64,000 bases of DNA from Macrophomina tecta (Eukaryota > Ascomycota > Dothideomycetes > Botryosphaeriales > Botryosphaeriaceae): the NCBI GenBank assembly GCA_024180945.1, contig JAKSGN010000005.1:2480001-2544000 (forward strand), in the 5' to 3' direction. A program made the translations under genes and the position numbers. The notes beneath the pieces were generated by a model, which did no database searches, was not told where the DNA came from, and was given only the letters and a program-made list of their open reading frames with translations. Every line of letters starts with the position of its first letter. Within the stretch, counting starts at the first letter, position 1. This document shows, in pieces, positions 7,201 through 47,531 of this stretch.

Positions 7201-8150
7201 TGCGCGCGAGAACATGCGCTTGGAGCCTGGCGGGAGGATCTGGTCCTGCAGGGAGATGGTGTCATCGTCATCTAGGGCGTCGGCAGGCTGGGTCTGATCC
7301 GAAGGAGTGGACCGGCTCGTTTCGCTGTGCGGCTGCTCGCGGGCTGGCACTGGTCTCCGAGAAGGAAAGGGCGACGAGCTCGATGGAATGCCGGGGGGGC
7401 GAGGCACATCCAGCTCCTCGCTGTTCTGGAGATCGGCAGCGCCAGTCACGAACGAGGTCAAGCCGCGGACCATCTGCTCGGCCTTGGAGTTGGTGTCCTG
7501 CGCTCTCGAAGCAGCAAGGTAGGAGACGGTGGTAGCAGCGACATCGTGCAGGTAAAGCAGCTGGTCGTCATCTAGGCCGTCGCGCGGACGGTCATCGATG
7601 ACACAGAAAACGCCGATGGCATGGCCGGCTGCGCTTTTCAGAGGCACGCCGGCATAGAAGCGAGCATAGGGAGGCTGCTGGACGAACGAGCAGTCTCTGA
7701 AGCGCTCGTCGGCCTGCAGATCGTTGATGACGACGGAGTCTTCGGACAAGACAGTCTCGCAGATGCCGCCCTCGCGCGGAACGGAGACGCTCCCTAGCCA
7801 CAGGCCGTGGCCGTGGCCGTCGCGGTCGCGGCCATGGGAGCGGAGCGGGAGCGCGGGGGTGGCCTCAGCAAGAATAATCTGCGACTGGCTGTCGATCAGG
7901 GAGATCAGGGCGCGAGCGGCGGGCAGGCGCAGGGCAGCCAGCTGGGCCAGGGCCGTGAGCACCGAGTCAGCAGACGGGCGCGGGCCTGACGCGGAGGTGC
8001 TGTCCGGGATGTGCAGCGCCAGAGGGTAGTAGCTGGGCGGGCGTTAGCAGGACGCAGCGCACGCGACGAGGATGGGCGAGAGGCGCACGAACACAGATCG
8101 CGTTCGCGAGCTCGCTCGGCGGCGAGACGAGCCTTGGACGCGGCGCTCAT
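4285..8150 (-). CDS. Hybrid sensor histidine kinase with GAF domain and C-terminal receiver
   Basis: This is a two-component phosphorelay sensor that should autophosphorylate on His and pass phosphate to its own receiver and then to an HPt protein. I join three exons: 8150-8095, 8032-5381 and 5314-4285. Intron 1 has a textbook TGCTAAC branch site and intron 2 starts GTAAGT. The product is 1,245 residues. In order it has a short basic start (…AAERARERDL), a GAF domain (about residues 43-215), a disordered Ser/Pro-rich linker, the H-box SHELRSPLHG (His near 516), the N-box NVFGNALKF (about 679), the G-box region (DSGIGMS…GAGLGMSVVK), a Pro/Ser-rich linker and a receiver. The receiver has IVDDN near 1013, phospho-acceptor Asp near 1061 in LMDLSMPVMDG, and Lys in MTKPIQF near the C-terminus. 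The receiver is split by a low-complexity insert of about 120 residues that includes poly-Gln. Upstream PAS or HAMP domains and membrane segments are absent, so it is probably soluble. The ligand is unknown. Confidence 0.92.
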
Positions 8151-16136: not shown

Positions 16137-17264
16137 GATGGCGGTGTGGAGGGCGGAGGCGGATCGAGAAAATTTTGGGCGAGGAATTAAAGGCGTGGGT
16201 ATCTAGAGAGCGGGCACGGCAATGTCGGCGGGAGACAGGGCGTGAGGAGCCAATGGCGCGTGCGTGGGCGGGCGCGCGTCAAAAAGGCGGAGAGGAAGGG
16301 AAGGAAAAGTTGGACGGGTGCTCGGTGGGTGTAGAGGGCGGTCACCACCAAGGCTTGCGGAGTTGTGGGAAGAGGGAGGGACGAAGGGCGGGTGGCAGGC
16401 GAGGGAACTGCAGGCTTTCAAGGCCGGGTGGGCGGTTGTTGGTATCAGCGGCTCTGGCGCGAACTTGAGCCCCGGGTGTTGAGGGTCTGCGGACGATGTT
16501 GAAGCTTTGGCTCCCCGGCAGGCCCAACGAAAATCGGCTAGTGTTGACGTGAATGAAGCACCTCCGCACACCCATTGACCGCCCACCGCCCACCCAACCT
16601 GGCGCCAGCAGCCGCTCGCAGCGAACGAGAGGCGTGCAATTTTCGCAGCGCGCGACTCCGACCGGCCCCGAGCTTGGGCGGCGGGCTGCAGGTGAGGCTC
16701 CATCCGCCCGGGCAGGCCCCGCGGTTGGCCGGGGGTGGCCTGCGCCAGCGTTAGACCTGCATAGCGGACGTCCCAACCGAATCCACCCCTGCACAGACGC
16801 GCTCAACTGAAAGCTGCCGCTGCAAGCCCGCCGAGCGCATGCTCCAGAGAGAAAAAAGAGTTGCTGTCCGTCCACGTCCCGACCACTCAACTCTTCCTCT
16901 TCCACGCCCTATCTCCCCCTCTCTCTCTTCTTCTTGCGTCCATCTTCCCCTCCTCCAGCCGTTAGATTTCCCCAGACACTCGGGGACGTGATACCCACCG
17001 ACAAGGGAGCTGCCTGCGCAGTACAGACGAATTCCCTTGCGCCGCCGTTGAGCTTGGTCCCTGCTGCCTCAGTGCCTCTGGTAAGCCTCCGTGCCTGCTC
17101 TTGCGCGCCGCATTGGCGCGCTGAGGAGCTGTTGTTGCCACCTTTCACGCAGTCTTACTTTCTGCGGGCGGTGTCGGGCCGGGAGCTTCGTGCGCGTCAG
17201 TACTGACAGCAATCCAGCACCACCTCATTCTGCAAGCCCACCTCCACATCCTTCACCTGCAACC
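16137..17264. promoter_or_regulatory. Shared divergent promoter region of FAS2 and FAS1
   Basis: A 1,128-bp spacer separates the two FAS start codons, which point away from each other. It must hold both promoters and 5' leaders. A pyrimidine-rich tract (16880-16960) lies toward fas1. I see no TATA box and did not identify a specific activator site. The divergent placement fits the need for equal amounts of both subunits. Confidence 0.7.
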
Positions 17265-20200
17265 ATGTACGGCTCTGGTCCGCAGACTGGCGTCTCCACG
17301 CCCCGCTCTCAGGCGCACCTCCGCCCTCTCATCCTCTCCCACGGCTCGCTCGAGCATACCTTCCTCATCCCGACCGCCCTCCACTTTAATGCTTCACAAC
17401 TCAAGGACACCTTCCTCTCCACCCTTCCCGAGCCGACAGAAGACCGTGCTCAGGATGACGAGCCGTCGTCGGAGTGCGAACTGGTCGCCAGATATTTGGG
17501 CTTCATTGCCAGGGAAGTCGAGGAGGGCGACGACCCGGGCTCGTTTGAGGAGGTCCTCAAACTCGTGCTGAACGAGTTCGAGAGGGCATTTTTGCAGGGC
17601 AACGAAGTCCATGCTATCGCTGCTCACCTGCCCGGTATTGAGGCAAAGAAGCTTACCGTTGTGAGCGCATACTATGGCGCTCGTGCTGCTGTCGACCGGC
17701 CGATCAAGCACCACGACTCGGCGCTTTTCCGGGAGGCCGCGGACGGAAATGCCCACATTTACCCTGTCTTCGGTGGTCAGGGTAACATTGAGGAGTACTT
17801 TGAGGAGCTCCGCGAAGTCTACACCACCTACCCGGCTTTCGTTGAGGACTTCGTCAACGCCGCCGCCGCCCATCTCCAGACGCTGTCCCGCGACGAGCGC
17901 GTCGCGAAGCAATACGCCAAGGGCCTGGATGTCCTGCGGTGGCTTAACAACAAGGAATCTCAGCCTGACACCGATTACCTGGTCTCCGCGCCTGTTAGCT
18001 TGCCGCTCATCGGTCTGACCCAGCTCGCACACTACGTTGTCACCTGCCGGGTGCTGGGAAGCCACCCTGGCCACCTCCGGAGCTACTTCAGCGGCACCAC
18101 CGGCCACTCACAGGGCGTGGTGACCGCTGCTGCCATTTCCGCATCGAAGAGCTGGGAAACTTTCGACAAGGCCTCGCGGGATGCACTCACCATCCTTTTC
18201 TGGATTGGTTCGCGTAGCCAGCAGGCCTACCCGCGCACTTCCCTAGCCCCCAATGTCCTGCAGGATTCGATTGACAATGGCGAAGGCACTCCCACGCCTA
18301 TGCTTTCAATCCGTGATCTCCCCAGGAAGGCCGTCGAGGAGCACATCGCAACGACAAACGAGCACTTGCCCAAGGATCAGCACATTGCCATCTCGCTGGT
18401 CAACAGCGCCCGCAACTTCGTCGTCACCGGCCCCCCAATTTCTCTGTACGGTCTGAACCTGCGCCTGAGGAAGGTGAAGGCTCCTACTGGTCTTGACCAG
18501 AACAGGATCCCCTTCACGGAGCGCAAAATTCGCTTCGTCAACCGTTTCCTGCCCATCACTGCGCCTTTCCACAGCCCGTACTTGGCCGAGGCGACCAAGT
18601 TCCTGGACGAGGACCTTAAGGACATCGTCATTCCCAGCGAAAACCTTGGAATCCCCATGTTCCACACTGCCACCGGCAAGGACATCCGTGAGGACAAGGA
18701 GGCCAACATCGTGCCTGCCCTCGTGAGGATGATCACTCAGGACCCTGTCAACTGGGAGCAGGCTACCGTCTTCCCGAATGCCACTCACATCCTTGACTTC
18801 GGTCCCGGTGGCATCTCAGGTCTTGGTGTCCTTACCAACCGCAACAAGGAAGGCACTGGAGTCCGCGTCATTCTTGCGGGCACCATGGACTCCACGAACA
18901 GCGAGGTCGGCTACAAGCCCGAGCTGTTCGATCGCGATTCTGAGCACGCCGTCAAGTATGCTGTGGACTGGGTGAAGGAGCACGGCCCCAAGCTAGTGAA
19001 GACTTCCGCTGGTCAGACCTTCGTCGATACGAAGATGAGCAGGCTTATCGGTCTTCCTCCGGTGATGGTTGCGGGTATGACTCCCTGCACCGTTCCCTGG
19101 AAGTTCGTTGCCGATACTATGAATGCCGGTTTCCACATTGAACTTGGTGGCGGTGGTTACTTCATGGATTCCATGATGACCGACGCCATTAAGAAAATCG
19201 AGCAGGCCATCCCTCCTGGACGTGGTATCAACATTAACGTGCTCTATGTCAACCCGCGTGCCTTGAGCTGGCAAATTCCCATGGTTGCCAGGCTTCGTTC
19301 TGAGGGTGTCCCGATCGAGGGTCTGACCATTGGTGCCGGCGTCCCCTCGATCGAAGTTGCGACCGAGTACATCGAGACGCTTGGTCTGAAGCACATCAGC
19401 TTCAAGCCCGGTTCTATGGATGCCATCCAGCAAGTGATCAACATCGCCAAGGCTCACCCGACTTTCCCTGTCATGCTGCAGTGGACTGGTGGTCGTGGTG
19501 GTGGTCACCACTCTTTCGAGGACTTTCATCAGCCGATCCTTCAGATGTACGGCCGTATCCGCAAGTGCGACAACATCATTCTTGTCGCCGGTAGCGGTTT
19601 CGGTTCTGCTGAGGATACTTACCCCTATCTCACTGGTGTTTGGTCCACCAAGTTTGGTTTCCCGCCCATGCCTTTCGATGGTTGCCTGTTCGGAAGTCGT
19701 ATCATGGTTGCCAAGGAAGCCTTCACCTCCCCGGCGGCCAAGCAGGCCATCGTGGATGCGCCCGGTGTCGATGACAGCGAGTGGGAGAAGACTTACAAGG
19801 GCCCTACTGGTGGTGTCATCACCGTTCGCTCTGAGATGGGTGAGCCTATCCACAAGCTCGCCACCCGCGGTGTCTTGTTCTGGGCCGAGATGGACCAGAA
19901 GATCTTCTCTCTCGACAAGGCTAAGCGTCTTGTGGAGCTCAAGAAGATGCGTGACTATATCATCAAGAAGCTCAATGACGACTTCCAGAAGCCTTGGTTC
20001 GGCAAGAACTCCGCTGGTGAAGCGGTCGATCTTGAGGACATGACCTATGGCGAAGTTGTTCGTCGTATGATTGAACTCATGTACGTGAAGCACCAGTCCC
20101 GCTGGATCGACGTCACGCTCCGCAACTTCACTGGCGACTTCATCCGCCGCGTCGAAGAGCGTTTCACAACCAGCTCTGGCAAACCGTCGTTGGTCCAGAA

Positions 20201-23200
20201 CTTCACGGAGCTCGAGAAGCCTTTTGAGTTTGTCGAGAAGCTCTTCAAGGAATATCCCGAGGCCGATAAACAGCTCATCAACGCTCAGGATGTGCAGCAC
20301 TTCCTGATGCTCACCATGAGGGTGATACAGAAGCCTGTCCCCTTTGTTCCTGCTCTTGATGAGAACTTCGAGTTCTACTTCAAGAAAGACTCGCTCTGGC
20401 AATCTGAGGACCTCGATGCTGTCGTTGACCAGGACGTGGGCAGAGTCTGTATCCTTCAGGGCCCAATGGCTGCCAGGTTCTCGACCAAGGTGGACGAGCC
20501 CGTTAAGGAAATTCTTGGCGGTATCCACGAGGGTCACATTAAGCACCTGACCCAGGACCTGTACGGCGGTGATGAGTCTAAGATCCCTGTCGTCGAATAT
20601 TTCGGTTCCAAGCTTCTTGGTGCCCACGATGATGTGGCCGAGGTCGAGGGTCTCACCGTTTCTGAGGTCCCTGATAAGACTATCTACAGGCTTTCCTCTG
20701 CCCCCAACGCCACCCTACCTGACATCACTTCGTGGATGCAGCTGCTGGCTGGCAAGACTTACTCTTGGAGACATGCATTCTTCACGGCGGATGTCTTCGT
20801 CCAGGGCCAGAGGTTCCAGTCCAACCCCATGCAGAGGATCTTTGCGCCAACGCTTGGTATGATGGTCGAGATTGCTCACCCCAACGACCCTGCCAAGACC
20901 GTCATCACCATGAGGGAGCCCTCCCATGGTGGTAAGCACATTAAGACCGTTGAGATCAGCCTGCAGGGCAAGAACGAAGTTCTGGTTAACATGATCGAGG
21001 AGCGCTCTGCCCTGCGCAAGCCGACTGCTTTGCCTCTCAAGTTCACTTACCACCCCGACTGTGGCTACGCCCCTATCCGCGAGGTTATGGAGGACCGCAA
21101 CGACAGAATCAAGGAGTTTTACTACAAGCTGTGGTTCGGCGACGAGCAGTGCCCCTTCGACGCTTCTGTCACCTCCACCTTCGAGGGTGGTCGTGCTACC
21201 ATTACTGGCGAGGCGATCAACGACTTCGTCCACGCTGTTGGCAACACTGGCGAAGCTTTCGTTGACCGTCCCGGTAAGGAGGTCTTCGCTCCTATGGACT
21301 TTGCTATCGTCGTTGGCTGGAAGGCTATTACCAAGCCCATTTTCCCTCGTGCTATCGACGGCGACCTTCTCAAGCTAGTTCACTTGTCCAACGAGTTCCG
21401 CATGGTCCCAGGTGCTCAACCTCTCAAGAAGGGTGATGTTCTCGACACCACCGCTCAGGTCAACGCTGTCATCAACCAGGATTCTGGTAAGATGGTGGAG
21501 GTCTGCGGTACCATCACCCGCGATGGCAAGCCTGTCATGGAGGTGACCAGCCAGTTCTTGTACCGCGGTGCTTACACCGACTACGAGAACGCCTTCCAGC
21601 GCAAGTCCGAGACTCCTTTCAACCTGCACTTGGCCACCACCAAGGATGTCGCTGTCCTGCGATCCAAGGAGTGGTTCAAGCTTGAGGACGGAGACATCGA
21701 TCTTCTGAACAAGACCTTGACTTTCAAGCTACAGACTCTCACCCGCTACAAGAACAAGTCTGTTTTCAGCTCGGTCGAGACCGTCGGCGAAGTCCTCCTT
21801 GAGCTGCCTACCAAGGAAATCGTCCAGATTGCTTCGGTGGAGTACGAGGCTGGTACTTCCCATGGCAACCCAGTCGTTGACTACCTCGAGCGCAACGGCA
21901 CTAAAGTTGATCAGCCTGTTCTCTTCGAGAACCCTATCCCCCTCCACGGCAAGAGCCCTCTTACGCTCAAGGCGCCGGCTTCCAACGAGACCTACGCCCG
22001 CGTGTCCGGCGACTACAACCCCATCCACGTGTCGAGGGTGTTCTCCAAATTTGCCAACCTGCCCGGCACTATCACCCACGGCATGTACTCGAGCGCTGCT
22101 GTCCGCAGCCTTGTTGAGACTTGGGCCGCTGAGAACAACATTGGTCGCATCCGCAGCTTCCACGCTGACCTTGTCGGCATGGTTCTGCCCGATGATGAGA
22201 TCGACGTGAAGTTGCAGCACGTTGGCATGATCTCGGGTCGCAAGATCATCAAGATCGAAGCTTCCAACAAGGAAACTGAGGAGAAGGTTCTTCTCGGCGA
22301 AGCCGAGGTTGAGCAGCCTACCTCTGCCTACGTCTTCACCGGCCAGGGCTCGCAGGAGCAGGGTATGGGTATGGACCTGTACAACAGCAGCCCTGTTGCC
22401 AAGGAAGTCTGGGACCGGGCCGACAAGCATTTCTTGGACAACTATGGCTTTGCCATTACTCACATTGTCAAGAACAACCCCAAGGAGCTCACCGTTCACT
22501 TCGGTGGCCCTCGCGGCAAGGCCATCCGCCAGAACTACATGTCCATGACTTTCGAGACTGTAGCTGCTGATGGCACGGTCAAGTCCGAGAGGATCTTCAA
22601 GGAGATTGATGAGGAAACGACCTCGTACACTTACCGCTCTCCCAGCGGTCTGCTTTCCGCTACCCAGTTCACGCAGCCCGCTCTTACTCTGATGGAGAAG
22701 GCTGCCTTCGAGGATATGAGAGCCAAGGGCCTCGTCCAGAGCGACAGCAGCTTTGCTGGCCACTCCCTCGGCGAGTACGCTGCGCTGGCTGCCCTTGCAG
22801 AGGTCATGCCCATCGAGAGCTTGGTCTCTGTCGTGTTCTACCGTGGTCTCACTATGCAGGTTGCGGTCGAGCGTGACGAGGCTGGACGCTCCAACTACTC
22901 CATGTGCGCTGTCAACCCCAGCAGGATCTCCAAGACCTTCAACGAGCAGGCTCTGCAGTACGTTGTCGAGAACATTGCCGAGCAGACTGGATGGCTCCTC
23001 GAGATTGTCAACTACAACATTGCCAACATGCAGTACGTTGCTGCTGGCGACCTGAGGGCGCTTGACTGCCTTACCAACGTCACCAACTACCTCAAGGCGC
23101 AGAAGATCGATATTCAGCAGCTCATGCAGACCATGTCGCTTGAAGACGTCAAGGCTCACCTGGTTGAGATCATCAAGGAATGCGCCAAGCAGACGGAGGC

Positions 23201-23525
23201 TAAGCCGAAGCCTCTTGATCTGCAGCGTGGATTCGCGACCATTCCACTCAAGGGCATCGACGTGCCCTTCCACAGCACCTTCCTGCGGTCTGGCGTCAAG
23301 CCGTTCCGTTCCTTCTTGCTCAAGAAGATTCATAAGACGTCGATCGACCCCAGCAAGCTGATTGGCAAGTACATCCCCAACGTGACTGCTCGTCCCTTCG
23401 AGATCACCAAGGAGTACTTCGAGGATGTTTACCGCCTGACCAACTCGCCCAAGATCGGCAACATTCTCGCCAACTGGGACAAGTACGAGGAGAAGCCACA
23501 GGAGGCGGCGGCTGCGACGGCTTAG
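17265..23525 (+). CDS. fas1: Fatty acid synthase subunit beta
   Basis: This is the beta chain of type I fungal fatty acid synthase, with acetyl transferase, enoyl reductase, dehydratase and malonyl/palmitoyl transferase activities. It is a single uninterrupted exon of 2,086 codons from the ATG at 17265 (ACCATGTACGG context). The open frame continues upstream, but the leader there is compositionally unlike FAS, so I place the start here. The acetyl transferase nucleophile is in GTTGHSQG (Ser near 282). The flavin-dependent enoyl reductase has VMVAGMTPC (about 605). The hot-dog dehydratase has GDYNPIHVS (His near 1588) and [11 protein letters not shown]. The malonyl/palmitoyl transferase has [12 protein letters not shown] (Ser near 1834). 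Length and domain order are normal. No break is seen, and codon use strongly favours C/G at third positions, as expected of a highly expressed gene. Confidence 0.98.
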
Positions 23526-35653: not shown

Positions 35654-37321
35654 TCAAATCATCTTCTCAGGTTCCGCTCGCACCATACTCGCATCCTTCT
35701 CTTGCGCCTCCGACCCATCCTCCCGGCTTTCTGATGTTGACGCCTCGTCGTACGCGTGAATTGTACACGGAACGAGGCTCTCCCGAGCCGGAAACGCGAC
35801 ACTCAGCGAGACATAAACAACCGCCGCCAAGCCAAATCCGACCAGGTAGTTGAGGTAGTAGATATACACCGCACCCCCGATATGCAGGCCCGGAGTGACA
35901 TCATGCGCCAGGCCGGGCAAGTTCGGCGCGACGGCCACCAGCAGCGCCGTCACGGCCCGCCAGTTCGTGCCCTTCCAATACGCGTACCGCCCGTGCGGAT
36001 CGTACAGCGCGGGCACGTCGATGGCGTGCCTCTTGACAACGAAGTAGTCGGTGATGAGAACGGCCGAGATGGGCGCCAGGAAGATGGCCAGCGCGCTGAC
36101 GAAGGTGACGAGCTGCGGCGCGGACCCGGAAATCTTCCACGGCACCATGACCCAGCCGCCGACGAGCGTTCCCAAGAAGGCGCCGCGGCGGATGTTGATG
36201 TAGCGCGGGAACAGGCCGGACAGGTCGTTGGACAGCGAGACGATGTTGGCCGACATGTTGATGCCGATCTGCGCCAGGCAGAACGAGATGCCGCAGAAGA
36301 AGACGGCGGCCCGCCCGCCGCTCGTCTCTTGCCAGTGCGCGAAGAGCTCGGCCGGCGACCAGATGAAGGTGCCGTAGACGACCTTGCTGGCGCTGCACGC
36401 GATCATGCCCATCACGCCGATGTACAGGCCAACGAGCGGCAGGCTGGCCGCCTGCACAACCTGGTGCCGCGGCGACTTGACGTAGCGCGAGACGTCGGCG
36501 ATGTTGGTCGCCATGGTCGCCCAGCCGCACACGGTCTGGAAGAGCATGTAGACGGTCAGCCAGGCGCGCTCGCTGCCGTCCACCGCCGGCTGCTGGTTGA
36601 AGATCTCGCCGGAGGTGCCCGCGCGGTGGACGAGATAGCCGACGATGCCGAGCGATGTGGCCACCATGAGGGCCGCTTTCATGTAGAAGAACCAGGTCAT
36701 CTTATGCGGCGGGATGAGCACGAAGGGCAGCTGCATCAGCCAGAACAGGAGGTGGGCTACGAGAGTCTTGGTGTCGATGTCCTGAGAGGCCGGGATGTGG
36801 TTCGGCAGCCGTCCAAACGATGGCCACATGGCCGTGAGCACTTGCGCCATGACCTGAGATCCGCTATATGTCTGAAGGGCATGCCAGAAAAGCGCAGTAG
36901 CAATGCGGATGCACACTACCCCTTTGGCAGCCTGGTAGCCGAAGCTGCTCCTTGCCTGCACGGGAAAGGGGACCCGCAACCGTGTGCCGATGTGACCGTT
37001 CAGCACTACGGGTATGGCGATGAGGAAATCCCCCAAGAAGGTACACCAGATGGCCTCCTTGTACGTTAGCCCTATCTTGATAATGGTAGCCATTGACTCC
37101 CAGCCCTGGATGGTGAGGATGTCGGAGAACCAATAGAATATCAGTGTCCATGCTTTCCACGTTTGCTTTTCCTTGGGAGTGGGATCCGTGTCTGCATTGG
37201 AAAAGGCGCCTGGCGGCGCAAGAGAGCTCGGTTCGACGTCAAGCTCCCATGCTGTGGCAGACGTGAGCCGTTTCTGAACCGTTTCCCGAGACGGAAGCCT
37301 TCTTCGAAGTTGGTCCGCCAT
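35654..37321 (-). CDS. NCS1-family nucleobase/allantoin-type permease
   Basis: This is a plasma-membrane proton symporter of nucleobase-cation-symport family 1 (Fur-like uracil/allantoin/uridine branch). It is a single exon with its ATG at 37321, 555 residues and about 12 hydrophobic segments. Family landmarks are the N-terminal motif LIFYWFSDILTIQGW in TM1 and the NGHIGTRLRVPFPVQARSSFGY loop. Others are QTVCGWATMATNIADVSRY in TM6 and ISFCLAQIGINMSANIVS in TM8. Late in the protein come PISAVLITDYFVVKR and the cytoplasmic YDPHGRYAYWKGTNWRA segment. It is the most downstream of five minus-strand genes. The CGG-N6-CGG motif found before three of the others was not seen upstream of it. NCS1 members import uracil, allantoin, hydantoins or vitamins; the substrate cannot be assigned here, but import of a small N-heterocycle would fit the hydrolases nearby. 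Confidence 0.92.
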   Translation of the reverse strand: MADQLRRRLPSRETVQKRLTSATAWELDVEPSSLAPPGAFSNADTDPTPKEKQTWKAWTLIFYWFSDILTIQGWESMATIIKIGLTYKEAIWCTFLGDFLIAIPVVLNGHIGTRLRVPFPVQARSSFGYQAAKGVVCIRIATALFWHALQTYSGSQVMAQVLTAMWPSFGRLPNHIPASQDIDTKTLVAHLLFWLMQLPFVLIPPHKMTWFFYMKAALMVATSLGIVGYLVHRAGTSGEIFNQQPAVDGSERAWLTVYMLFQTVCGWATMATNIADVSRYVKSPRHQVVQAASLPLVGLYIGVMGMIACSASKVVYGTFIWSPAELFAHWQETSGGRAAVFFCGISFCLAQIGINMSANIVSLSNDLSGLFPRYINIRRGAFLGTLVGGWVMVPWKISGSAPQLVTFVSALAIFLAPISAVLITDYFVVKRHAIDVPALYDPHGRYAYWKGTNWRAVTALLVAVAPNLPGLAHDVTPGLHIGGAVYIYYLNYLVGFGLAAVVYVSLSVAFPARESLVPCTIHAYDEASTSESREDGSEAQEKDASMVRAEPEKMI

Positions 37322-37891
37322 GTCCAATCGAGTGGAGTACGTTGCCGAGCGAAATTGGAAGATGACAAGGCGTGAACATCACAGTTACCGGCGTAGCGGC
37401 CCATAAGAACTGTGTTTGGTCGCGTGGGGAATGAACAGGCGGCAGGAGAGGCGAGCCCGCAAAGATAAGATAGGTATTGGCCTACGAGTCCCGCGGGGTA
37501 TATCGGCCGCATCTCGCGAAAAGCGGGGTCCCCAATTTGGCTCAAAATTTTTTCCCTCCATAGCGTTCGGCGGTCCGATGTCTGAGTCGTAGCTTCTTTT
37601 AGCGTTTGATCCTGCTATCAAACGCGATAACGAGTCAGAGATGCAAGAGTGGGAGCCCGCTGGAGCATTCCGCCAATCGGAATCTGACAGACGAATCGGG
37701 CATTGCGGATTAGAGAGATGTCGCCAATATAACACCTGAAAGGCGGGATACGAGCATGCTTGCCATCGAATATTTAGGGGTAGATTTCTCTGGGCCAGCA
37801 CACGGTCCTAGTGCCAGGACGAATTCCATTTTCGGTCATGGACATATGTACGAGAAGGTTGACGGGATAGTTGAACCGTGAATCGAGAGTA
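37322..37891. other. Intergenic, permease promoter and regulator 3' end
   Basis: This 570-bp spacer lies between two minus-strand genes. It shows no supported ORF and no copy of the CGGAGAWGGCGG motif. Confidence 0.45.
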
Positions 37892-39996
37892 CTACACGTC
37901 GAGACCATCTGCAAAGGTTTCCCAAAGATCCCAGGGCACCGTAGAGGGGCTTAGCCAGTACCTTGGTTGCAGACGGTTCATCAGACTGCTGGCATGTCGT
38001 TGGCTCTCCGGCCAGGGCCCAATTCTATGGTCATAACTCACGCGCAAAATGTCTCTCTGAATCTGAATCGACTCACTTTCGGCTGCGTTAGTCGCATTGT
38101 CAAAAGAAGAGTGGTTGAGGGACACTGACAAGAGGCGCCTTAGCGCTGGTTCTGCCTTGGCACAGATACGGCTGCGTGGAGCCATGTCACCAAAAGTCTG
38201 CAGTGTCTCCATGAGAAGAATTTGGAGTTCTTGGTCCTGATCATCGTCCCCTGGTGAGGATAAGACTGCGGCAAGTACCACTGCGGCGTGAAAGGCATGA
38301 AAACTTCCCACTCCCTGACTGTACCATCTGTACGGAAGAAAAAGAGGAGATTGGTCAATTGAGCGATGAAGCTCGAGCATCTGTCGGGCGGCTTTGATGC
38401 ATTTTTCGCGGGAGACCTTCGATTGCTCCCACGTGGAGCAGAGACTGGGGTTCACAAAGAAGGGACGGTGGAGGAGGAGCACAAGCTGGTGGCTATAGCC
38501 ATCAAGTATATGCAGCTGCAACATGTGGTGAGCTGGGAGAGACTGTGTCTGAAGGTCCCTCAGGTATCGTGCGTTCCACGATTCACGCTCCAGATTGATC
38601 TCCCGCTCCAAATCCGACAGGGTCTGCGCCGAAAGAGCCTGTTCTCCGTAGAAGCTGAGGCATATCCTTGAATAGATCCCGTAAAGTCGGAATTTGAAGA
38701 GCATGTAAGTCATCTGCGTTGCTCTCGGGGAATCTTCAAGAAGGGTGAGTGCGTCCGTAAGTTGGTCGTCGTCGATGTTCGCTGGAAGCTGTACTGAGCC
38801 CGAGATCCGTGGAGCCTCAACGTTACCAGACGCAATGCTTTGAATGGTATATAGCATCATTAGACCTGCCCAGCATCGCCGTCTGTTCTCACAGTCCAAA
38901 GGGCTCAGGTTGAAATGCTCAGGATCCACATGACACCCGATGGCTACGGCCATATTGTAGGTCATCCCAAGAAGGGCCCAGCTCTCTCCATGGGTATGGC
39001 TAATACCGTAGATCAGAAGAACCATAGCCTGGACTGTGCAAAGGGTTTGGCGAGACATATAGTGGTCAGCTTGTAAGCACCGCATGGCTGCCGCACGATA
39101 GCGGGCCGACAAGATCGAGATATTTTTCAAAGGTTCTTCGCGCCTTCCCAAGTCTTCGAGGAGCTTGCTCTCACCGCTAAGGCTTGTGACTGATATGCTG
39201 ATCATGATATACAGCAGGGCTAACCAAGAGAGCGAAGCGGTTTGCGGACTTGATTTGAACTTTGCATAAGATTCCCTAAAAGTGGGCTCATGTAATATGT
39301 GGAACAGCTGTGCGAGCTAATTAGATGGGAGCTGCGGGATGGGCTCCATGAAGATACACGTACCGGGGAAAATACAGCAAAGAACACTTCAACAAGCTCA
39401 TCGCAGGACGAGTACGGAGGCAAAGGTAGCATAAGATCATCCAAAGACGTTCGAAAAGCAGAGCCGAAAGGCCCGTCAGTGTTGTCTTCGGTGCATTCAT
39501 CACCGCAACCACTCATGGTATCTACCAGCGCCGAATCTTGCAGGATGGAATCCCAGGCTGAGCTCGATGGTTGGAACCGGACATGGCCAGATTTGGAGAC
39601 GACCAATCGACCTCCTGAGACGGGTCTAGCCGGAAAGTTGTCCGATGGCGGAGTCTGGAGTGCAGCAGAGAAATCCGTGGATAAGGAAGTGTGCGACACA
39701 TCTGTCTCAGGACTGGGAAGCTGCCAATCGGCTATATGGGCCCTAAGCAGAGCCTCCAGTTGCTTCACACGTTCAGCCAGCTCGTCGGTAGGTGTGGATA
39801 TGACTGCTTGGTCAGTGCGACGCTCGAAATTGCGCGAGGGCTCTCGAGTGGCGTAAACGCATTCCGATGGCGGGATCCGCCTACGAACACATGTCGAGCA
39901 TGGGCCGGGCTTGGTACGCGGACACCGAATCTTGCGCTGTCTGCAGGGTTCGCAACTGACGGGCATGCGCTTCCTGGACGCGACCGGCGCGGACAT
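37892..39996 (-). CDS. Zn2Cys6 transcription factor with fungal-specific middle homology region
   Basis: This is a nuclear binuclear-zinc-cluster regulator, probably controlling the neighbouring enzymes. I join exons 39996-39364 and 39307-37892, giving 682 residues. The ATG at 39996 is the first in frame. The six zinc ligands are Cys15, 18, 25, 33, 36 and 46 (CEPCRQRKIRC…CSTC…C). A short coiled-coil-like stretch (ELAERVKQLEALLRAHI) follows, typical of dimerising members. Exon 2 begins LFHILHEPTF, the usual entry to the fungal_trans domain, which includes RRRCWAGLMMLYTIQS and ends with the C-terminal …WDLWETFADGLDV. Three CGG triplets spaced by 6 bp (40067-40087) lie 71-91 bp before its start, suggesting autoregulation. 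It sits between the permease and the fusion hydrolase on the same strand. Confidence 0.92.
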
Positions 39997-40427
39997 GGCG
40001 GATGTAGAAGGTGCGTTGGATTGAGACTGGCTTGCTCCGGGAGAGGTGTTATAGCGCGGTGGAGGGCGGAGAAGGCGGAGAAGGCGGGGATGCGCAAAAC
40101 CAGTGTCATGCGCATCCTCGGCTAATGGAAGAGCGTCACTCCTGGAGCATTTTTTACGAGTCAATTCTACATTAACTGTGATTGTACGCACTTGCGGAGA
40201 TGGTCGCAATGACCCTTGCTGAATTGCACAGCTGTTCACTTAGTCACGAAGATGCGTCTGTCAACCTGGTGCAACTTCTCCACCTGTGGCTGACATCATA
40301 CCCCAACATATCAGGGCGGACAGTTCAGTGCAGTAAGAGAAGGAATAGAAGGTATTATCATTGCCGGAATTCATAGTCAGCGTAATCCATGCCTGTAACG
40401 ATGAAGGACAGAGCCCCCCGCTATCGC
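39997..40427. other. Intergenic, regulator promoter
   Basis: This 431-bp spacer upstream of the Zn2Cys6 gene contains the CGG-N6-CGG-N6-CGG array at 40067-40087. The sequence is not coding if the first in-frame ATG is used. Confidence 0.5.
40067..40087 (+). promoter_or_regulatory. CGG-N6-CGG-N6-CGG array (CGGAGAAGGCGG twice, overlapping)
   Basis: Two overlapping copies of CGGAGAAGGCGG lie 71-91 bp upstream of the Zn2Cys6 regulator ATG. Zinc cluster dimers bind paired CGG triplets at fixed spacing. The same 12-mer with one T-for-A change occurs before the fusion hydrolase (42386) and the amidohydrolase (45670). Confidence 0.5.
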
Positions 40428-42225
40428 TCATGAGAGAAATTTCGCAACAGCATGAGACACGCCTGCCGGATCTTCGAAGAGATGCCAATGTCCAACATTG
40501 GGCAAAACGCTGACCTCGCTGCCTGCAATCCTCTCTCCGTAAGCCTTGGCCAATGCTGGAGGACAAACCGCATCATTGTCCCCAGTAAGGATGAGCGTTT
40601 CAGCCTCCAGACTCTCAACAGGGATAGCATCGGTAGCCCCAGCCAGTGCAGAACATCCTTTAGCGTATCCCTCGGGGTCTTGCCCGAGTAGAGAAAGCCT
40701 GATGGCAGTGGTGGCTAGCGCATTGTTCGCTTGCGTATGGTGCGAAGTGCCGGCGCCGACTATGCCATCCACCACGGCGGACATTCCACCTTTCCTTACC
40801 GTAGCGGCACGTGCGTGCGAGCCCTGAGATCCAGCGGCAGGCAGCGGCGACGGCGGGGGACCCAACAAAATGAGCTTCTTCACGAGCTCAGGATATCTGC
40901 AGGCAAATGTGGCTGCGACGAGGCAACCCATCGAGTGGGCGATGACGGTGGCATTCCCTGTGATGCCTGCATGCTTGAAGATTTGCAAAAGGTCTGATGC
41001 GAATGATCCAACGGAAAGGACACTCAGCGGTGATGTCGGGGAGAGCCCATGGCCCTCGAGGTCAAAAAGATGTAGCGGCCGGTCTGCCAAAGAGGCACCA
41101 GAGATCAAAGGTCTCCAGTAATCGAGTGTCCCACCGAGTCCGTGGATGAAAACAATTGGCGTGCCGTTGTCTCCCCCCAGTTTCTTGTAATGAAGCAGCT
41201 TCCCCCCGACGTCTGTGAGGCCGACCCCACCTACGCTCTTTGCAAAGTTATTGGGAGAGATCGCAGAGGCCTTGAGGGCAGGGGCAGCGGGAAGACTATC
41301 GGAGACCTTGTTGCGGAGAGTACCGAGACCAGTCACTGACACAGCGATCTCATCTCCAGGTTTGAGAAAAACAGGAGGTCTCCGCCCAATACCCACGCCG
41401 GCGGGAGTTCCAGTGGCCAGAACGTCTCCTGGTTGAAGTGTCTGGCCTTCAGACATAGTTTTGATAAGCTTTGGGATAGAGAAGATCAGATCATTGGTTG
41501 TGGAATCCTGTCTAGCCTCCCCGTTGACATGCGTTTGGATCTTGAGCACGGGAGGCAAATGCACTTTCGAGATGGCAATCGGGCCCTGTAAAGAGTAAAT
41601 AACTTGCTTAAGTTGGAGACAAGCACGACAGGGAACATACCATCGGACAAAAAGTATCAGCTGACTTTCCAATGTAGAATTGTTTGTGGTCCCTTTGTCT
41701 TTCTCGCGCAGTCACGTCGTTGATGATCGTGTAACCCCAGACGTGATCCATAGCGGCATTCTCATCAATTCTAAAGCCAGCTTTCCCGATGATGACACCT
41801 ATCTCACCCTCGTAATCAAGGCTCTCAGTGAACCCGGGGTGGGAGAAGATGGAATCTCCGTGGGCAATAATTGAAGTTGCGCGTTTGGTGAATATCACGG
41901 GATGGGTAGGCTGGTCAACCTTGTCAGAGCTGTCATAACCTGATTGGTTGAACTCTTTGGCATGCTCGCTGTAGTTCTTGCCTACAGCGAGGATGTCTCT
42001 ACCAGTAATGGGGGCGAGGAGCTGGACTGAAGCGGCTGGGAACGGTTGTCCGCCCGGAGAGATGAGACTTTCTCCAGCTTCAATGACCTGGTACATATCC
42101 GTGACCGCAGTGCCAGAAAGAAAGTGTAAAGGCTGAATTGTTTCATTTTGGAGGTCGTAGTGGCCCATGCGGGGCTGGGAAACCACCGGGTCGAGATAGG
42201 CTGCGAAGTGAATAGCGGCCATCAT
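40428..42225 (-). CDS. Fusion of FAH-family isomerase/hydrolase domain with alpha/beta hydrolase
   Basis: This predicted bifunctional catabolic enzyme is encoded by exons 42225-41641 and 41585-40428 (580 residues; a start one codon later at 42222 is equally good). Residues 1 to about 290 form a fumarylacetoacetate-hydrolase-type domain: GKNYSEHAKEF, the metal-binding EGEIGVIIGK and INDVTARE, and the signature TMSEGQTLQPGDVLATGTPAGVG. Such domains hydrolyse, isomerise or decarboxylate beta-dicarbonyl or hydroxymuconate compounds. From about 320 to 580 an alpha/beta hydrolase follows: oxyanion HGLGG, nucleophile Ser413 in AHSMG, acid Asp near 533 in GDNDAV, and His561 in VGHWHLF, most like enol-lactone or carboxylester hydrolases. 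The linker shows no stop or splice site, so I take the fusion as real. The two domains could act in sequence on one ring-cleavage product. The substrate is unknown. Confidence 0.88.
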
Positions 42226-42645
42226 GTGCAGATGATTGAGTCGTGAGGATGTGGCAGCAAAGGAGGGAGATGATTTGTATAGTCTCAACGGGCTTTGCTG
42301 AACTTGCCATCCTTTTGATCCATCAGCGGGGAAGACTAGAGTGGGTAGTTGTTAGGCCCGTCTGCGGCAACACAGATGCTTATCCCCGCCATCTCCGCCG
42401 TCCCCGCATGTTCTCCGCGCTTGCATCAGTCAGCTCCACTTCACTACCCACTCCGTTGTGCAACACTGTAGGCATCTTTAAGGTAGCCCACTTGCCTCCA
42501 CAGCCTCGTCAGTATACTCCGCCAAACTAAGTAAGGTATTTCAACGGATTGGTAATACTATCATTCAGTTACTATGCTTGTGGACAAGAAACCCCCGCTT
42601 CGCTGCCTTCATCAGATCATGCCACCCTCCTCCCGTGTGGATAGT
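42226..42645. other. Intergenic, fusion-hydrolase promoter
   Basis: This 420-bp spacer contains the CCGCCATCTCCG site at 42386-42397. No ORF is supported. Confidence 0.45.
42386..42397 (-). promoter_or_regulatory. CGGAGATGGCGG site before the fusion hydrolase
   Basis: Read on the gene strand the site is CGGAGATGGCGG, about 161 bp upstream of the ATG, with another CGG immediately beside it. It is identical to the site before the amidohydrolase. It is a candidate target for the neighbouring Zn2Cys6 regulator. Confidence 0.5.
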
Positions 42646-43194
42646 TCACCAGTCCTGAGAGGATCCCAAGCGCGCCAGACCAATGTACCGTGGCTTTTCC
42701 TGGAATCTATTTGCAACTCCTGTGGTGCGGGCAATTCTGTAGCGGTGCCCCGCCGCTCGCAGATGTTCGGCGCTGTGGAATCTCCAGAATTGCCAGGAGC
42801 AGTCTGTCCCTTTGAAGTTGAAGAGTATTTGAGCACCTCCTGGATGATCGTGGGCGTAATCGGTGCAGTCGTAGACAATACTGTCTATCACGAGATAAAG
42901 ACGTTCCACGTTCTCCTCGAGTTGGGCAGCAAAATCTACCGCGGACAAAAACGGGAGCTCCTCATTGGGAAGTGCTTCGTCTGCTAAGGGCAGATGCTCT
43001 ATGTGCGGATAATGCTGGTCTGGCGAGGTAAGACTCTTCCTGTCTCCGGGGGACTTGTCGTATTTCGTGGAAGTGGAGCTGACCGGCGGCCCACGGATGT
43101 TCTCGATATGTATGTGTGCATATTTGAGATCGTGTTCTGCCGGAGTAAGCTGAGTATTGCTAGTATAACTAGCTTTGAGCTTCATCCAGCCCAT
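42646..43194 (-). CDS. Stand-alone cytochrome b5-like heme-binding domain protein
   Basis: This is a small electron-transfer protein of 182 residues if started at the ATG at 43194; the start is uncertain because the frame is open further upstream. The C-terminal half is a cytochrome b5 fold: LYLVIDSIVYDCTDYAHDHPGG, with heme-ligand His117 in HPGG and second ligand His140 in FWRFHSAEHL. The N-terminal 90 residues are unremarkable, and no transmembrane anchor is visible at either end. It lies between the fusion hydrolase and the amidohydrolase on the same strand. Such proteins donate electrons to hydroxylases or desaturases, but no P450 or Rieske partner is encoded in the window. The family is well supported; the role is inferred from position only. 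Confidence 0.78.
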   Translation of the reverse strand: MGWMKLKASYTSNTQLTPAEHDLKYAHIHIENIRGPPVSSTSTKYDKSPGDRKSLTSPDQHYPHIEHLPLADEALPNEELPFLSAVDFAAQLEENVERLYLVIDSIVYDCTDYAHDHPGGAQILFNFKGTDCSWQFWRFHSAEHLRAAGHRYRIARTTGVANRFQEKPRYIGLARLGSSQDW

Positions 43195-43685
43195 GGAGGT
43201 CGATATTTTTATGAAGAAATGGTGTAATGACGAGCACGTGTAAAATTTGAACTTTCCCGAGTTGTAGACACGGACTTCAGAAGATTCATTCAAATCTTCC
43301 AGACGAGTCTTCTAAGGTAGAGTAAGGATGAGGGGTAGCGCTGAAACAGCCGAGGTAATTATGTCCGAGAATGAAGAAGTCTTGAAATGCTCCGCAAAGG
43401 GTCCACTACATGCCCGTAGCCAATGGCGATGGTTACCAATGACAAATGTCTGACCCATAGAACGGCGAGGTTAGTGCGAAACAAAAGGCACAGTAGTCAA
43501 GCATGCACAGGATGAGGTAAATTGCTATAGGTAAGCAAGCATACAATCAAGTGGCAACTGCTCCGTTGAAAGCTTCTCAAATGCATGGCATTTCTGTCGG
43601 ATAGCTCGGAGGAGCTGGCTGTACAAACTAGCTTAAGAACTAATTGGAAACATCATACTGATTCAAACCCAAGAAGAGAATTTCA
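43195..43685. other. Intergenic, between cytochrome b5 gene and amidohydrolase
   Basis: This 491-bp spacer has no ORF of note and no copy of the CGG-N6-CGG motif. Confidence 0.4.
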
Positions 43686-45502
43686 TCAATAGTCCCTCTG
43701 CATGCTCTTCTTAATCTCAGGATACTCCTCCACACCCAGGTTTGGGACAATATTATGCTTGTTATGGTCCTGACCTGCAATGGGAACCGATGCGAAGTCT
43801 CGGACGTATTCCCTTCTCCCGGCCTTGTGCACGCGGCCGTTCATGATGATAATGTTTATCTTGTCATGATCTTGAAGAATCGAGATATCGTCCAAGGGAC
43901 TTCCATCGATGAGTATGCAGTCTGCGTAGTATCCTGGAAGAATCTTGCCAAGCTCGTGGTCCCTCATGAACAATTTAGCAACTCCGCTGGTAGCGGCGAT
44001 AAGGGCCTCGTGCGCAGTGAAGCCGAGGAGACGGACAAAGTGTTCGAGGTCGCGGGCATATGTCCCATGCGGCGTCCACTTGTCTTGTAAGCATCATTAC
44101 AACCAGGTTTCTGTGACGCCCTACTTACTGCAAAGCCGTAATCCCCTCCTGGCAAAACGACGATACCCCGCCTGTGCATCTCCCGAAGCGCTGCAATTGC
44201 AGCATCGAGCTCCCGTTGATATCCGGCCTTTTCCGCATGTGCATATGAGTAGCCAAATGCTTCAGCCTCATTAAGAGTAGCAACAAGCCAGTTGATGGCA
44301 GGAGCCACGACCAACTCTGCCTTCTTTTCCTCAAGCATTTGCATACCTGCCAAACATTTCGAGTATCAGCATGAGGCTAGCTCTGCGATGCATCTTGGCT
44401 AAAGGGTAACTCACCCTCGTCATCAATGTATGAAGCATGGTATATCACATCGACCCCATGCTTGACGCACATTTTTACTGAGTCGCGTGCGCGAGCGTGT
44501 GCACAGAGCCGTTTACCGGCTTTATGGGCCTCATCCACACAGGCTGCCGTCTCCTCATCTGTGAAGTAGCAGTCTTGTGCAGACCTGATCTCCGTGATCT
44601 AGAGCGTGCAATCAGATCGATTAGCGCAGCCAATTTGGCGGACGGAATGGAAGAGCTTACCTCCTCTCCAGACATGCTCAGCTTTATGTTGTCAACACCG
44701 AGCTCAATATGCTCCCTGATCACCTCTCGCATCTCATCTGGTCCGTCGGCAAACGCTGAAATGCCAGCAACCAAGTCACCACCCCGCCGGCACATTTCCT
44801 GGCCGTTAGCCAGATAACGTGGCCCGGGGATATCCCCAGCATTGATAGCATCCCGGATGACGACGTCCAGGCGTTTCTTCGCAGAAGCGGCGCCGAATGC
44901 CATGGTGTATCCGGAGTCCAGGAAGCATTGGGCGCTTTTCATTGTGAGTAACACATGCTCCTCGACTCCGAGCTCTCCGAGCCTCGCAAGGTCACCGCCT
45001 ACATATGAGTTGAAGGCAATGAGCGTCGGAGGACTGCATGATCATGTTTTAGAACGCTTACCGTTCCATGTGAAATGTGCGTGAGCATCGCCGAGGCCGG
45101 ACATGAGAGTCCTGCCTTTGCCTTGGAATACTCGGACTTTGGGATCCTTCATGAGCTTTTCTCTATTTGCAACATTCCCAACCTGTGCTATGCGCTCGCC
45201 TTCGCGCGCATATTAGCTGGAGCCCGGCTCGAAGCACGGGCTTTCCTGACCTCACCTTCGATTAAAACATCTCCGCGGTATGGCTCGCGGCCGGTTGACT
45301 CGAGTATATTCACATCAGTGAACAAGATTTTTGACGCTGGATGTGTACCCAGGATTTCGTATTTCTTCGGAGTCAGGGACCGATCGAAGGCCAAATCCGC
45401 AATGGGAGCCATGTTGCGAGGGAACCCCCGATACTGCGCAGGCTCTGAAGCTACATCAGTCGGCCATGAGATTGTTGACTCTTGGTGCACGGACGGAGAC
45501 AT
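43686..45502 (-). CDS. Metal-dependent amidohydrolase, six exons
   Basis: This is a TIM-barrel amidohydrolase of the imidazolonepropionase/prolidase-like branch, expected to cleave amide or cyclic amide bonds with zinc. I join exons 45502-45256, 45199-45062, 44998-44661, 44598-44415, 44346-44129 and 44078-43686; all junctions keep frame and give 505 residues. Metal ligands by motif are His122 and His124 in DAHAHF, Lys234 in NIKLSMSG (probably the carboxylated bridging Lys), His275 in CAHARA, His295 in IYHAS, and Asp371 in LPGGDYGFAWTPHG. The C-terminal strand ADCILIDGSPLDDI is typical of the small beta domain. There is no signal peptide, so it is cytosolic. It is the first gene of the minus-strand run, with a CGGAGATGGCGG site about 168 bp upstream. 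The substrate is unknown. Confidence 0.9.
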
Positions 45503-45669
45503 GGTGCGATGAGGATGAAAGAGGAGACGAACGAGGAGCCCAAGAAACTGTTCAGAGGACGGTGCTTACGAGGATGCCTTGGCTGTCATCTTCATGCAGC
45601 CATATAGTCAAATACGGAAGTCAATATGCGGGGTAAGACGGTGGTTGAAGAGGCCAAGACCGCCCTTCT

Positions 45670-45681
45670 CCGCCATCTCCG
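45670..45681 (-). promoter_or_regulatory. CGGAGATGGCGG site before the amidohydrolase
   Basis: This is the same 12-mer, in the same orientation and at nearly the same distance (about 168 bp) as the site before the fusion hydrolase. It is a candidate Zn2Cys6 binding site. Confidence 0.5.
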
Positions 45682-47531
45682 CTCCACGAGCTCACCCTGT
45701 TCCGGCAGTATGTGCATTTATAATTGATATACCTTAATTATGGGCCATTGATGAGGATGGAAAGGGAGACGTGGTGCCGGGCATGTAGCAAAGTCTGCTG
45801 CCATACACATTGGAATCCCTCACCGTTCTACATGCATTGAAGCCATATCTTGAGCGGAAGATTAGCCACCTATTCGAAATGAACTTCGGTGGAGTTGCGT
45901 TGGCCTCTTCTGAAGGAAGCTGAATCCACATGGACGGCACAATACGCCGATGATTAGGAGAACGGTATCGAAATCGCGTAGGGCCCCTGCAATGGTTGAT
46001 GACCCCACAGCGGGCGGGAGGAAGCGGCCCCAGACTTCCGAGCATGCTGGGTCAACCGTCACAAACGCCCACCAAGCGCCCGCCCTCCTGGCCGTCATCT
46101 CCGCGTCTCGCATTCATCGGAACCTACGTCAAGATCCAGCAGCATCATCGATCGGCTTGCTACTCACGACCCTCGCGGGAGAGAAGGAACCGGTCTCATT
46201 GTGCCAACCTGCTCGCCGGGCCCGCGCGCTTGGAGTTCAGCGGTTCACTCGCTCCGCGCTCCCCCCAATTCTCGCGTCCTGTAGAAGCACTCATCCCGCC
46301 TTTGCCGTCTTTACTACCGTCTGCGTTTGACACCATACAGTCATATCCCCCAGTCATCCTGAGCTGGCTTTTGCGGATCTGATACGATGCGACGTGGTCC
46401 AAAATGCGATATTCCAAGCTGACGAGAGTACAGTCGCGTTGCGGAGTGCGACCGCTCGGTCATAGATAGCGCTGATAAGCACTACGATGGTTGCTTGGAT
46501 CTGCCGAGAAGCCATTGACGCTCACACTGAAAAGCTCAACGCATGACGAATCCCGAAATCGCGGCTGCTCAACGCCATCATCATCGCATCGTACCTTCCG
46601 TGGACTGCTGCTGCGAACACAGTCAGAGACACGGTAATAAAAGCATGCTGGTGAAATGGATACTAGCAACGCGGCATTGTTAGTCAAGATCTGGTGGCGT
46701 ATTTGATCTCTGTTGCATTGCCTTCTCCCTCTTGCTTCGTTTTCCTGCGAGCTCGTCCTCTCCCGCCGCGAAAAATCCCCGAAGTATTCCGAGAATTTGA
46801 ACGCGGGCGCAGCATAAATGGATCGAAGAGAGAGAAGCACCGATCAACATGAGCGGAGAGGAGTGCGTGACGGAGGTGGATGCTCTTGAAGGTCTGACGC
46901 TTCTGCGAAACCATATTCAACGTTGATCTGCCGACTTTGCCCGCTGAAAAGAGCCTCAAGACGGCAATGACGTCTGCCATGCCGCCGAACCGGATCGAAT
47001 AGCCTTCTGCCGATTTCCATGGGAGAATCATTGAACCCCGAGATCTCGCCGACCGAACGCGATATCAAGCTCGGATTCGGACTTGGGCCGAATATGGCAA
47101 GGCTTTGCTTGAGCACAGACGTCGCGACTAATGGTGCCGTCCTGATTACTCTAACATTTGAAGCCTCAAAATTACCAAGCAGCGCGCGACGGAGCTCCAC
47201 CCGTCAGCGTTTTTGGTGCTCCTGATTGGCTGCCGCGCTTTTTCATCTGGCCGGCAGTGGCGTCTACGTTCCTCCCTCGAAGCTTCCTCAGCCATGATCA
47301 CTATTCTTGTGTTTCTGTGCGCCATTCATCGACGTTGGCTTACGTTTCATGCCCACGTTTTCTATGTCCGATTGGGACAAGCAACCGACAAGCTTTGCCA
47401 CGTGTGTCTGCAAGGGCCGCTCCTGCGGCTCTTCGTGCTGGGGATGCTGAGTGAGCAGCAATGTCCGCGGTGTTGGTGCCGGACGTCAATCGCCTGAGCC
47501 ATGCTCCGCTGGAAAATCATGGAACCAGCAG

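What the first reader, a model, noticed from the sequence alone, without database searches (positions are those of the whole stretch)
40067..45681. Shared CGG-N6-CGG motif marks a candidate regulon around a Zn2Cys6 gene
The 12-mer CGGAGATGGCGG occurs about 161 bp before the fusion hydrolase (42386-42397) and about 168 bp before the amidohydrolase (45670-45681), in the same orientation. The regulator's own promoter has two overlapping CGGAGAAGGCGG copies (40067-40087). A one-mismatch copy (46092-46103) lies farther out in the amidohydrolase/Old Yellow Enzyme spacer. I did not see it before the cytochrome b5 gene, the permease, the tautomerase or the monooxygenase. Zinc cluster dimers read exactly such paired CGG triplets, so the embedded regulator could bind all three promoters and itself.
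Basis: partly seen in the sequence, partly recalled or inferred. Interest (0 to 1): 0.8.

Follow-up and report, generated by a model that had tools for sequence, protein, structure and literature searches.

The report
Likely self-regulating fungal regulon sites
Three neighbouring genes of a fungus share an unusual repeated DNA tag in their control regions, most likely the landing site of the regulator that one of the three encodes, so that it would control its pathway and itself; this is a good candidate of an ordinary kind and still needs a binding test.

Summary
The sites are real and at the stated coordinates. The 12-mer alone is not specific: CGGAGAWGGCGG occurs 122 times in the 54.1-Mb genome. 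But it is the core of a longer 9-bp-periodic array, GCGGRGAHG-GCGGRGAWG, with 9 genomic matches, 4 of them in the regulator, fusion-hydrolase and amidohydrolase promoters. A 20-mer version has exactly two perfect genomic matches, the regulator and hydrolase promoters. The trio shares an 18-mer with 4 mismatches in all; 300 shuffles reach 8 at best, the 34 other promoter trios of the window 9-11, and 1 of 400 real-sequence trios reaches 4. The embedded Zn2Cys6 regulator is the likeliest reader: its family profile matches the Hap1 DNA-binding domain best by far, Hap1 reads direct repeats, and regulator, hydrolase and amidohydrolase recur together on other fungal contigs. Main rival: 8 of the 9 CGG units also fit the carbon repressor CreA's SYGGRG. 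Binding is not shown, and site conservation in other species could not be tested because no fungal DNA is held. Verdict: well-supported candidate regulon, new member of a known kind.

The parts
37892..39996 (-). Zn2Cys6 regulator gene; exons 39364-39996 and 37892-39316, 685 aa
   Evidence: Pfam Zn_clus 3e-06 and Fungal_trans 5.5e-13; ATG 39996; junction chosen among 12 frame-keeping options; homologs start alike
40066..40096 (+). array in regulator promoter: GCGGAGAAG GCGGAGAAG GCGGGGATG CGCA; inverted relative to the gene
40428..42225 (-). FAH-domain / alpha-beta hydrolase fusion, 580 aa; intron 41586-41640 read by eye
   Evidence: Pfam PF01557, PF00561; homologs of 553-602 aa over 97-100% of it
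42377..42407 (-). array in hydrolase promoter: GCGGGGACG GCGGAGATG GCGGGGATA AGCA
42646..43194 (-). cytochrome b5-like gene between FAH and AH; no array before it
   Evidence: Pfam Cyt-b5 9e-14
43686..45502 (-). amidohydrolase gene, several exons, splice sites read by eye
   Evidence: Pfam Amidohydro_1 1e-07 on the last exon; PDB prolidase-like 1.4e-33; homologs up to 78% identity
45660..45682 (-). array in amidohydrolase promoter: GCGGAGATG GCGGAGAAG then CGG shifted by 1 bp
46092..46103 (-). single CGGAGATGACGG copy in the AH/OYE spacer; doubtful
35654..37321 (-). NCS1-type permease gene, no array in its upstream region; cluster membership uncertain
   Evidence: Pfam Transp_cyt_pur 4.4e-88

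Best explanation
The arrays are binding sites of the embedded Zn2Cys6 regulator. Each 9-bp unit carries one CGG that one zinc cluster reads; two units in tandem form a CGG-N6-CGG direct repeat bound by an asymmetric, Hap1-like dimer. The regulator thereby controls the FAH/alpha-beta hydrolase fusion, the amidohydrolase and, about 71 bp before its own start codon, itself. Shown: the array, its near-uniqueness to these three promoters, the domains, the Hap1-like DNA-binding domain, the recurrent linkage of the three genes. Inferred: binding, dimer geometry, activation rather than repression, autoregulation.
For: 18-mer class GCGGRGAHGGCGGRGAWG: 9 genomic matches, 4 in the three promoters (reversed control 3); of the 5 others 3 lie in long open frames that look coding, 2 are unclear. 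CGGAGAWGGCGGGGATNNGC: 2 perfect matches in 54.1 Mb, both here; AH has 2 mismatches, as do 20 other places. Trio score 4 versus at best 8 in 300 shuffles, 9-11 in 34 other trios of the window and 1 of 400 real-sequence trios at 4 or below. Profile of 20 regulator homologs against the PDB: Hap1/CYP1 7.7e-12, next RSC30 1.7e-05; single sequence Hap1 1.3e-05, next PUT3 0.011. Hap1 binds direct repeats asymmetrically (PMC3358323, passages). The FAH paralog L010 (69% identity) has no CGG-N6-CGG in 3585 bases. Precedent: the Zn2Cys6 factor KojR prefers CGGCTAATGCGG, and the kojT promoter holds four CGGN6CGG (PMC10890517, abstract and passages).
Against: No binding or expression data. The patterns were chosen after seeing the locus. 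The 12-mer is common. 8 of the 9 units fit SYGGRG. The OYE and FAH upstream regions also share a block rarely reached by shuffles (7 of 300) that is not this array as far as tested. The third CGG of the AH array is out of phase. The b5 gene, inside the cluster, has no array. Most listed homologs show no shared contig (102 of 120 regulator rows with FAH), though the lists are capped at 120.
Confidence: 0.7

Rival explanations
1. The arrays are clustered sites of the carbon catabolite repressor CreA (Mig1 type): GCGGAG and GCGGGG both fit SYGGRG. CreA would repress the structural genes and the pathway regulator together, the double lock known for ethanol genes.
For: 3 of 3 units in the regulator array, 3 of 3 in FAH and 2 of 3 in AH fit SYGGRG (read from the sequence). 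CreA often has several bound sites at promoters of regulator genes, and double-lock control is described (PMC8844935, passages).
Against: SYGGRG is everywhere: 399 in the window against a shuffle mean of 367. Phased triples SYGGRG-N3-SYGGRG-N3-SYGGRG show little excess genome-wide (37 against 31 for the reversed pattern). CreA explains neither the 9-bp phase nor the A-W-G that follows the hexamer in nearly all units.
Confidence: 0.14
2. The arrays are products of 9-bp replication slippage or of a copied promoter fragment, without a common reader.
For: Units are near-identical tandem 9-mers; 9-bp microsatellites of related sequence exist in the genome (L075); the regulator and FAH arrays are 31 nt inverted copies at 84%.
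Against: No similarity beyond the block was found in the upstream regions (best ungapped block is the array itself). Slippage would have to hit three promoters of one conserved gene set; trio score 4 against 9-11 for other trios.
Confidence: 0.08
3. Another Zn2Cys6 or GC-box factor encoded elsewhere reads the array.
For: Many fungal Zn2Cys6 proteins read paired CGG triplets (PMC5559640, PMC5468973, passages); 20 distant regulator-like matches in this genome.
Against: Linkage of this regulator with FAH on other contigs and an array in its own promoter make it the simplest reader.
Confidence: 0.08

Closest known systems
Hap1/CYP1 of yeast
   Same: Zn2Cys6 domain with an R-x-P-x-S-C start and a coiled-coil-like stretch after the linker; best PDB match; reads direct repeats. 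The 6-bp spacing of its sites is recalled, not from a call.
   Different: Heme-responsive, not a cluster regulator. Hap1 sites favour TA in the spacer (recalled); here the spacer is AGAWGG.
KojR of Aspergillus oryzae
   Same: Cluster-encoded Zn2Cys6 regulator preferring CGG-N6-CGG (CGGCTAATGCGG), several copies in one target promoter (PMC10890517).
   Different: Spacer differs; kojic acid biosynthesis rather than a FAH/amidohydrolase set. Protein relationship to KojR not tested.
AmyR and InuR
   Same: Zn2Cys6 activators of catabolic genes reading CGG repeats (PMC5468973, passages).
   Different: Spacing is N8, not N6.
CreA double-lock elements
   Same: GC-rich SYGGRG repeats in promoters of pathway genes and their regulator (PMC8844935).
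   Different: No fixed 9-bp phase is known to me; the genome shows little excess of phased SYGGRG triples.

Membership tests
Zn2Cys6 transcription factors | Zn_clus domain with six cysteines | tested here: met
   PF00172 3e-06, 27.7 bits against a cut-off of 21; the cysteines are among the columns at least 90% conserved
Zn2Cys6 transcription factors | fungal-specific middle domain | tested here: met
   PF04082 5.5e-13
direct-repeat (Hap1-type) readers | closest DNA-binding domain is Hap1 | tested here: met
   profile 7.7e-12 against 1.7e-05 for the next protein
direct-repeat (Hap1-type) readers | binds CGG-N6-CGG | not testable with these tools
   needs gel shift or DAP-seq
self-regulating cluster regulon | site shared by the regulator and structural gene promoters beyond chance | tested here: met
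   patterns defined after seeing the locus
self-regulating cluster regulon | sites conserved in orthologous loci | not testable with these tools
   no fungal relatives held (one search states none); only proteins found
CreA target | clustered SYGGRG in the promoters | tested here: inconclusive
   8 of 9 units fit, but the hexamer is common and phased triples show little excess

The most novel reading that the evidence does not exclude
A dual-reading element: one tandem 9-bp array serves both the pathway activator (CGG-N6-CGG) and CreA (SYGGRG), so that activation and carbon repression compete for the same bases in the enzyme promoters and in the regulator's own promoter. Three equally spaced CGG would also let dimers sit in two overlapping registers. 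The regulator, FAH fusion and amidohydrolase would form an old regulon of filamentous ascomycetes for an unknown substrate.
Probability: 0.2. Interest if true: 0.55.

Novelty: new member of a known kind. Interest (0 to 1): 0.4.

Why it matters
If right, an uncharacterised regulator family with homologs in many ascomycetes gets a concrete, testable binding site and target set, and the recurrent regulator / FAH fusion / amidohydrolase set becomes recognisable as one regulon. It also gives a simple place to ask how an activator and CreA share bases. It does not change what is known about how Zn2Cys6 proteins work.

Tried and rejected
The bare 12-mer as the marker: rejected as non-specific (122 genomic copies; 54 of CGGAGATGGCGG). 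The sample of genomic copies is partial: all 52 outside copies of CGGAGATGGCGG and 8 of the CGGAGAAGGCGG copies were scored. Paralogous clusters: the FAH paralog L010 and five weaker FAH or regulator loci on other contigs hold no such array; scattered single CGG-N6-CGG of other sequence do occur. CreA hexamer counting: uninformative. Papers: one paper holds a CGG-N6-CGG spelling; searches showed no paper on this cluster or site in their listings (open PMC papers only; one search listed 14 papers holding the letters, none of whose titles concerns a fungal regulator). PMC10512309 (abstract and passages) lists a Fusarium C6 factor FVEG_03393 beside a FAH gene FVEG_03394 that is induced by benzoxazolinone (log2 2.34) while the factor is not significant; orthology was not tested. 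No structure prediction was run.

Weak points of my own work: splice sites of the FAH fusion and amidohydrolase were read by eye (the scripted FAH search printed nothing because its start was one base off); the contig length of one row (P0347) was mistyped and one row (P0247) had none, neither affecting the listed pairs; the real-sequence null draws on 27 loci that I picked as non-coding-like.
Full report
Setting. The window lies in a fungal genome of 54.1 Mb in 37 contigs. The regulator is 98% identical over the 57% of it that the match covers, and the FAH fusion 96% over its full length, to proteins of Macrophomina phaseolina MS6, so this is that species or a close sister. On the minus strand lie an NCS1-type permease, a Zn2Cys6 regulator, a FAH-domain / alpha-beta hydrolase fusion, a cytochrome b5-like gene and an amidohydrolase; an Old Yellow Enzyme gene follows on the plus strand.

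The observation. The 12-mer alone is a weak marker: 122 copies genome-wide, 60 for the reversed pattern. Of 60 other copies scored, 23 exceed 5 in a rough codon score; the score is imperfect, because the window's own amidohydrolase site gets 8.4 in a 27-codon frame. As arithmetic, about 0.01 groups of three such places within 5.7 kb are expected in the genome, with the caveat that the pattern was chosen from this locus.

The array. Read as 9-bp units, the regulator promoter has GCGGAGAAG GCGGAGAAG GCGGGGATG, the hydrolase promoter GCGGGGACG GCGGAGATG GCGGGGATA, and the amidohydrolase promoter GCGGAGATG GCGGAGAAG followed by a CGG one base out of phase. The first two are 31-nt inverted copies at 84%. 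CGGAGAWGGCGGGGATNNGC has exactly two perfect genomic matches, these two promoters; with up to 2 mismatches there are 26 places (reversed control 12), the amidohydrolase promoter among them. GCGGRGAHGGCGGRGAWG has 9 matches (reversed control 3), 4 of them in the three promoters; of the other 5, three lie in long open frames that look coding (L008, L077, L078) and two are unclear (L073, L076). CGGNGANGGCGGNGANGGCGG has 8 matches, 2 here, reversed control 3.

Chance. Best ungapped block between promoter pairs against 300 shuffles each: regulator-FAH 0 of 300, regulator-AH 1, FAH-AH 13, OYE-FAH 7, permease-FAH 75, b5-FAH 265. For the three promoters jointly, the best 18-mer costs 4 mismatches; 300 shuffles reach 8 at best, the 34 other trios of seven upstream regions of this window give 9 to 11, and 1 of 400 trios of real sequence from other loci gives 4 or less.

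The reader of the sites. The regulator has Zn_clus and Fungal_trans domains. Against the PDB its first 106 residues match Hap1/CYP1 best (1.3e-05; next PUT3 0.011), and a profile of 20 homologs does so much more clearly (7.7e-12; next RSC30 1.7e-05). Hap1 binds two half-sites arranged as direct repeats, asymmetrically (PMC3358323, passages); that its spacing is 6 bp is recalled. KojR, a cluster-encoded Zn2Cys6 factor, prefers CGGCTAATGCGG, and the kojT promoter holds four CGGN6CGG (PMC10890517, abstract and passages).

Linkage elsewhere. Homolog lists (best 120 of 410, 1120 and 3310) were compared by the length of the longest contig, equal lengths above 10 kb being taken as the same contig: regulator with FAH 18 pairs (one of them M. 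phaseolina), FAH with amidohydrolase 27, regulator with amidohydrolase 14, all three on 6 contigs. Locus tags in the listings agree: ONS95_010813, _010812 and _010809; IFR05_007467, _007466 and _007463; BP6252_10878, _10879 and _10881; EG329_012034, _012036 and _012039; VTN77DRAFT_2529 and _2528. One record has FAH and amidohydrolase domains in one gene model (P0123, Aplosporella). Against: 102 of 120 regulator rows have no FAH partner in the capped list, in Pycnora the amidohydrolase is 12 tags away from FAH, and in Thermocarpiscus it is on another contig. Linkage of the permease, b5 or OYE genes was not tested.

Negative control in the same genome. The FAH paralog at C7 (69% identity, L010) has no CGG-N6-CGG within 3585 bases, and none of the regulator-like matches lies near it.

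Rivals. Eight of the nine CGG units fit the CreA hexamer SYGGRG, and CreA double-lock control with several bound sites at regulator promoters is described (PMC8844935, passages). But SYGGRG is common (399 against 367 in shuffles), phased triples show little genomic excess (37 against 31), and CreA does not ask for the A-W-G that follows. Both proteins may read the array. Slippage of 9-bp units is possible (a related microsatellite exists at L075), but would have to strike three promoters of one recurrent gene set.

Function of the genes. The FAH half is closest to YisK-like and HpcE-like decarboxylases/hydrolases, the other half to esterases and enol-lactonases, and the amidohydrolase to prolidase-like and imidazolonepropionase-like enzymes. 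A catabolic pathway opening an amide or lactam ring is a guess; the substrate is unknown.

Verdict. Conservation of the sites across species, the decisive computation, could not be run because no fungal DNA other than this genome is held.

Noticed in passing
window 10553-15601 (-) and 17085-23525 (+): Divergent pair of very long frames that look like the two fatty acid synthase subunits (by eye from the translation; not searched).
   Followed up: no
window 4285-8043 (-): Long frames that look like a GAF/histidine kinase with a receiver domain (by eye; not searched).
   Followed up: no
window 39990-40001 and 37315-37326: The regulator and permease start codons sit in the same kind of context (CGGACATGGCGG, TGGACATGGCGG on opposite strands), so these near-copies of the motif are probably start-codon context rather than sites.
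   Followed up: partly
window 46296-46307 (-): CGGCAAAGGCGGGATG, a degenerate relative of the array, in the AH/OYE spacer; no exact match to the array.
   Followed up: no
L035 (C7:98069) and L051 (C21:10164); C7:39004 and C12:2059: Motif copies with identical surroundings lie near contig ends, suggesting subtelomeric duplications.
   Followed up: no
C3:16288, C3:3788884, C31:1518737, C31:2149775, C32:435487: The same 24-mer recurs at five places, probably a dispersed repeat.
   Followed up: no
P0008, P0044, P0054, P0074, P0098: Database gene models fuse the regulator to a TauD-type dioxygenase or to a pyridine-nucleotide oxidoreductase, hinting at other neighbours of the regulator in Talaromyces and Fusarium.
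   Followed up: no
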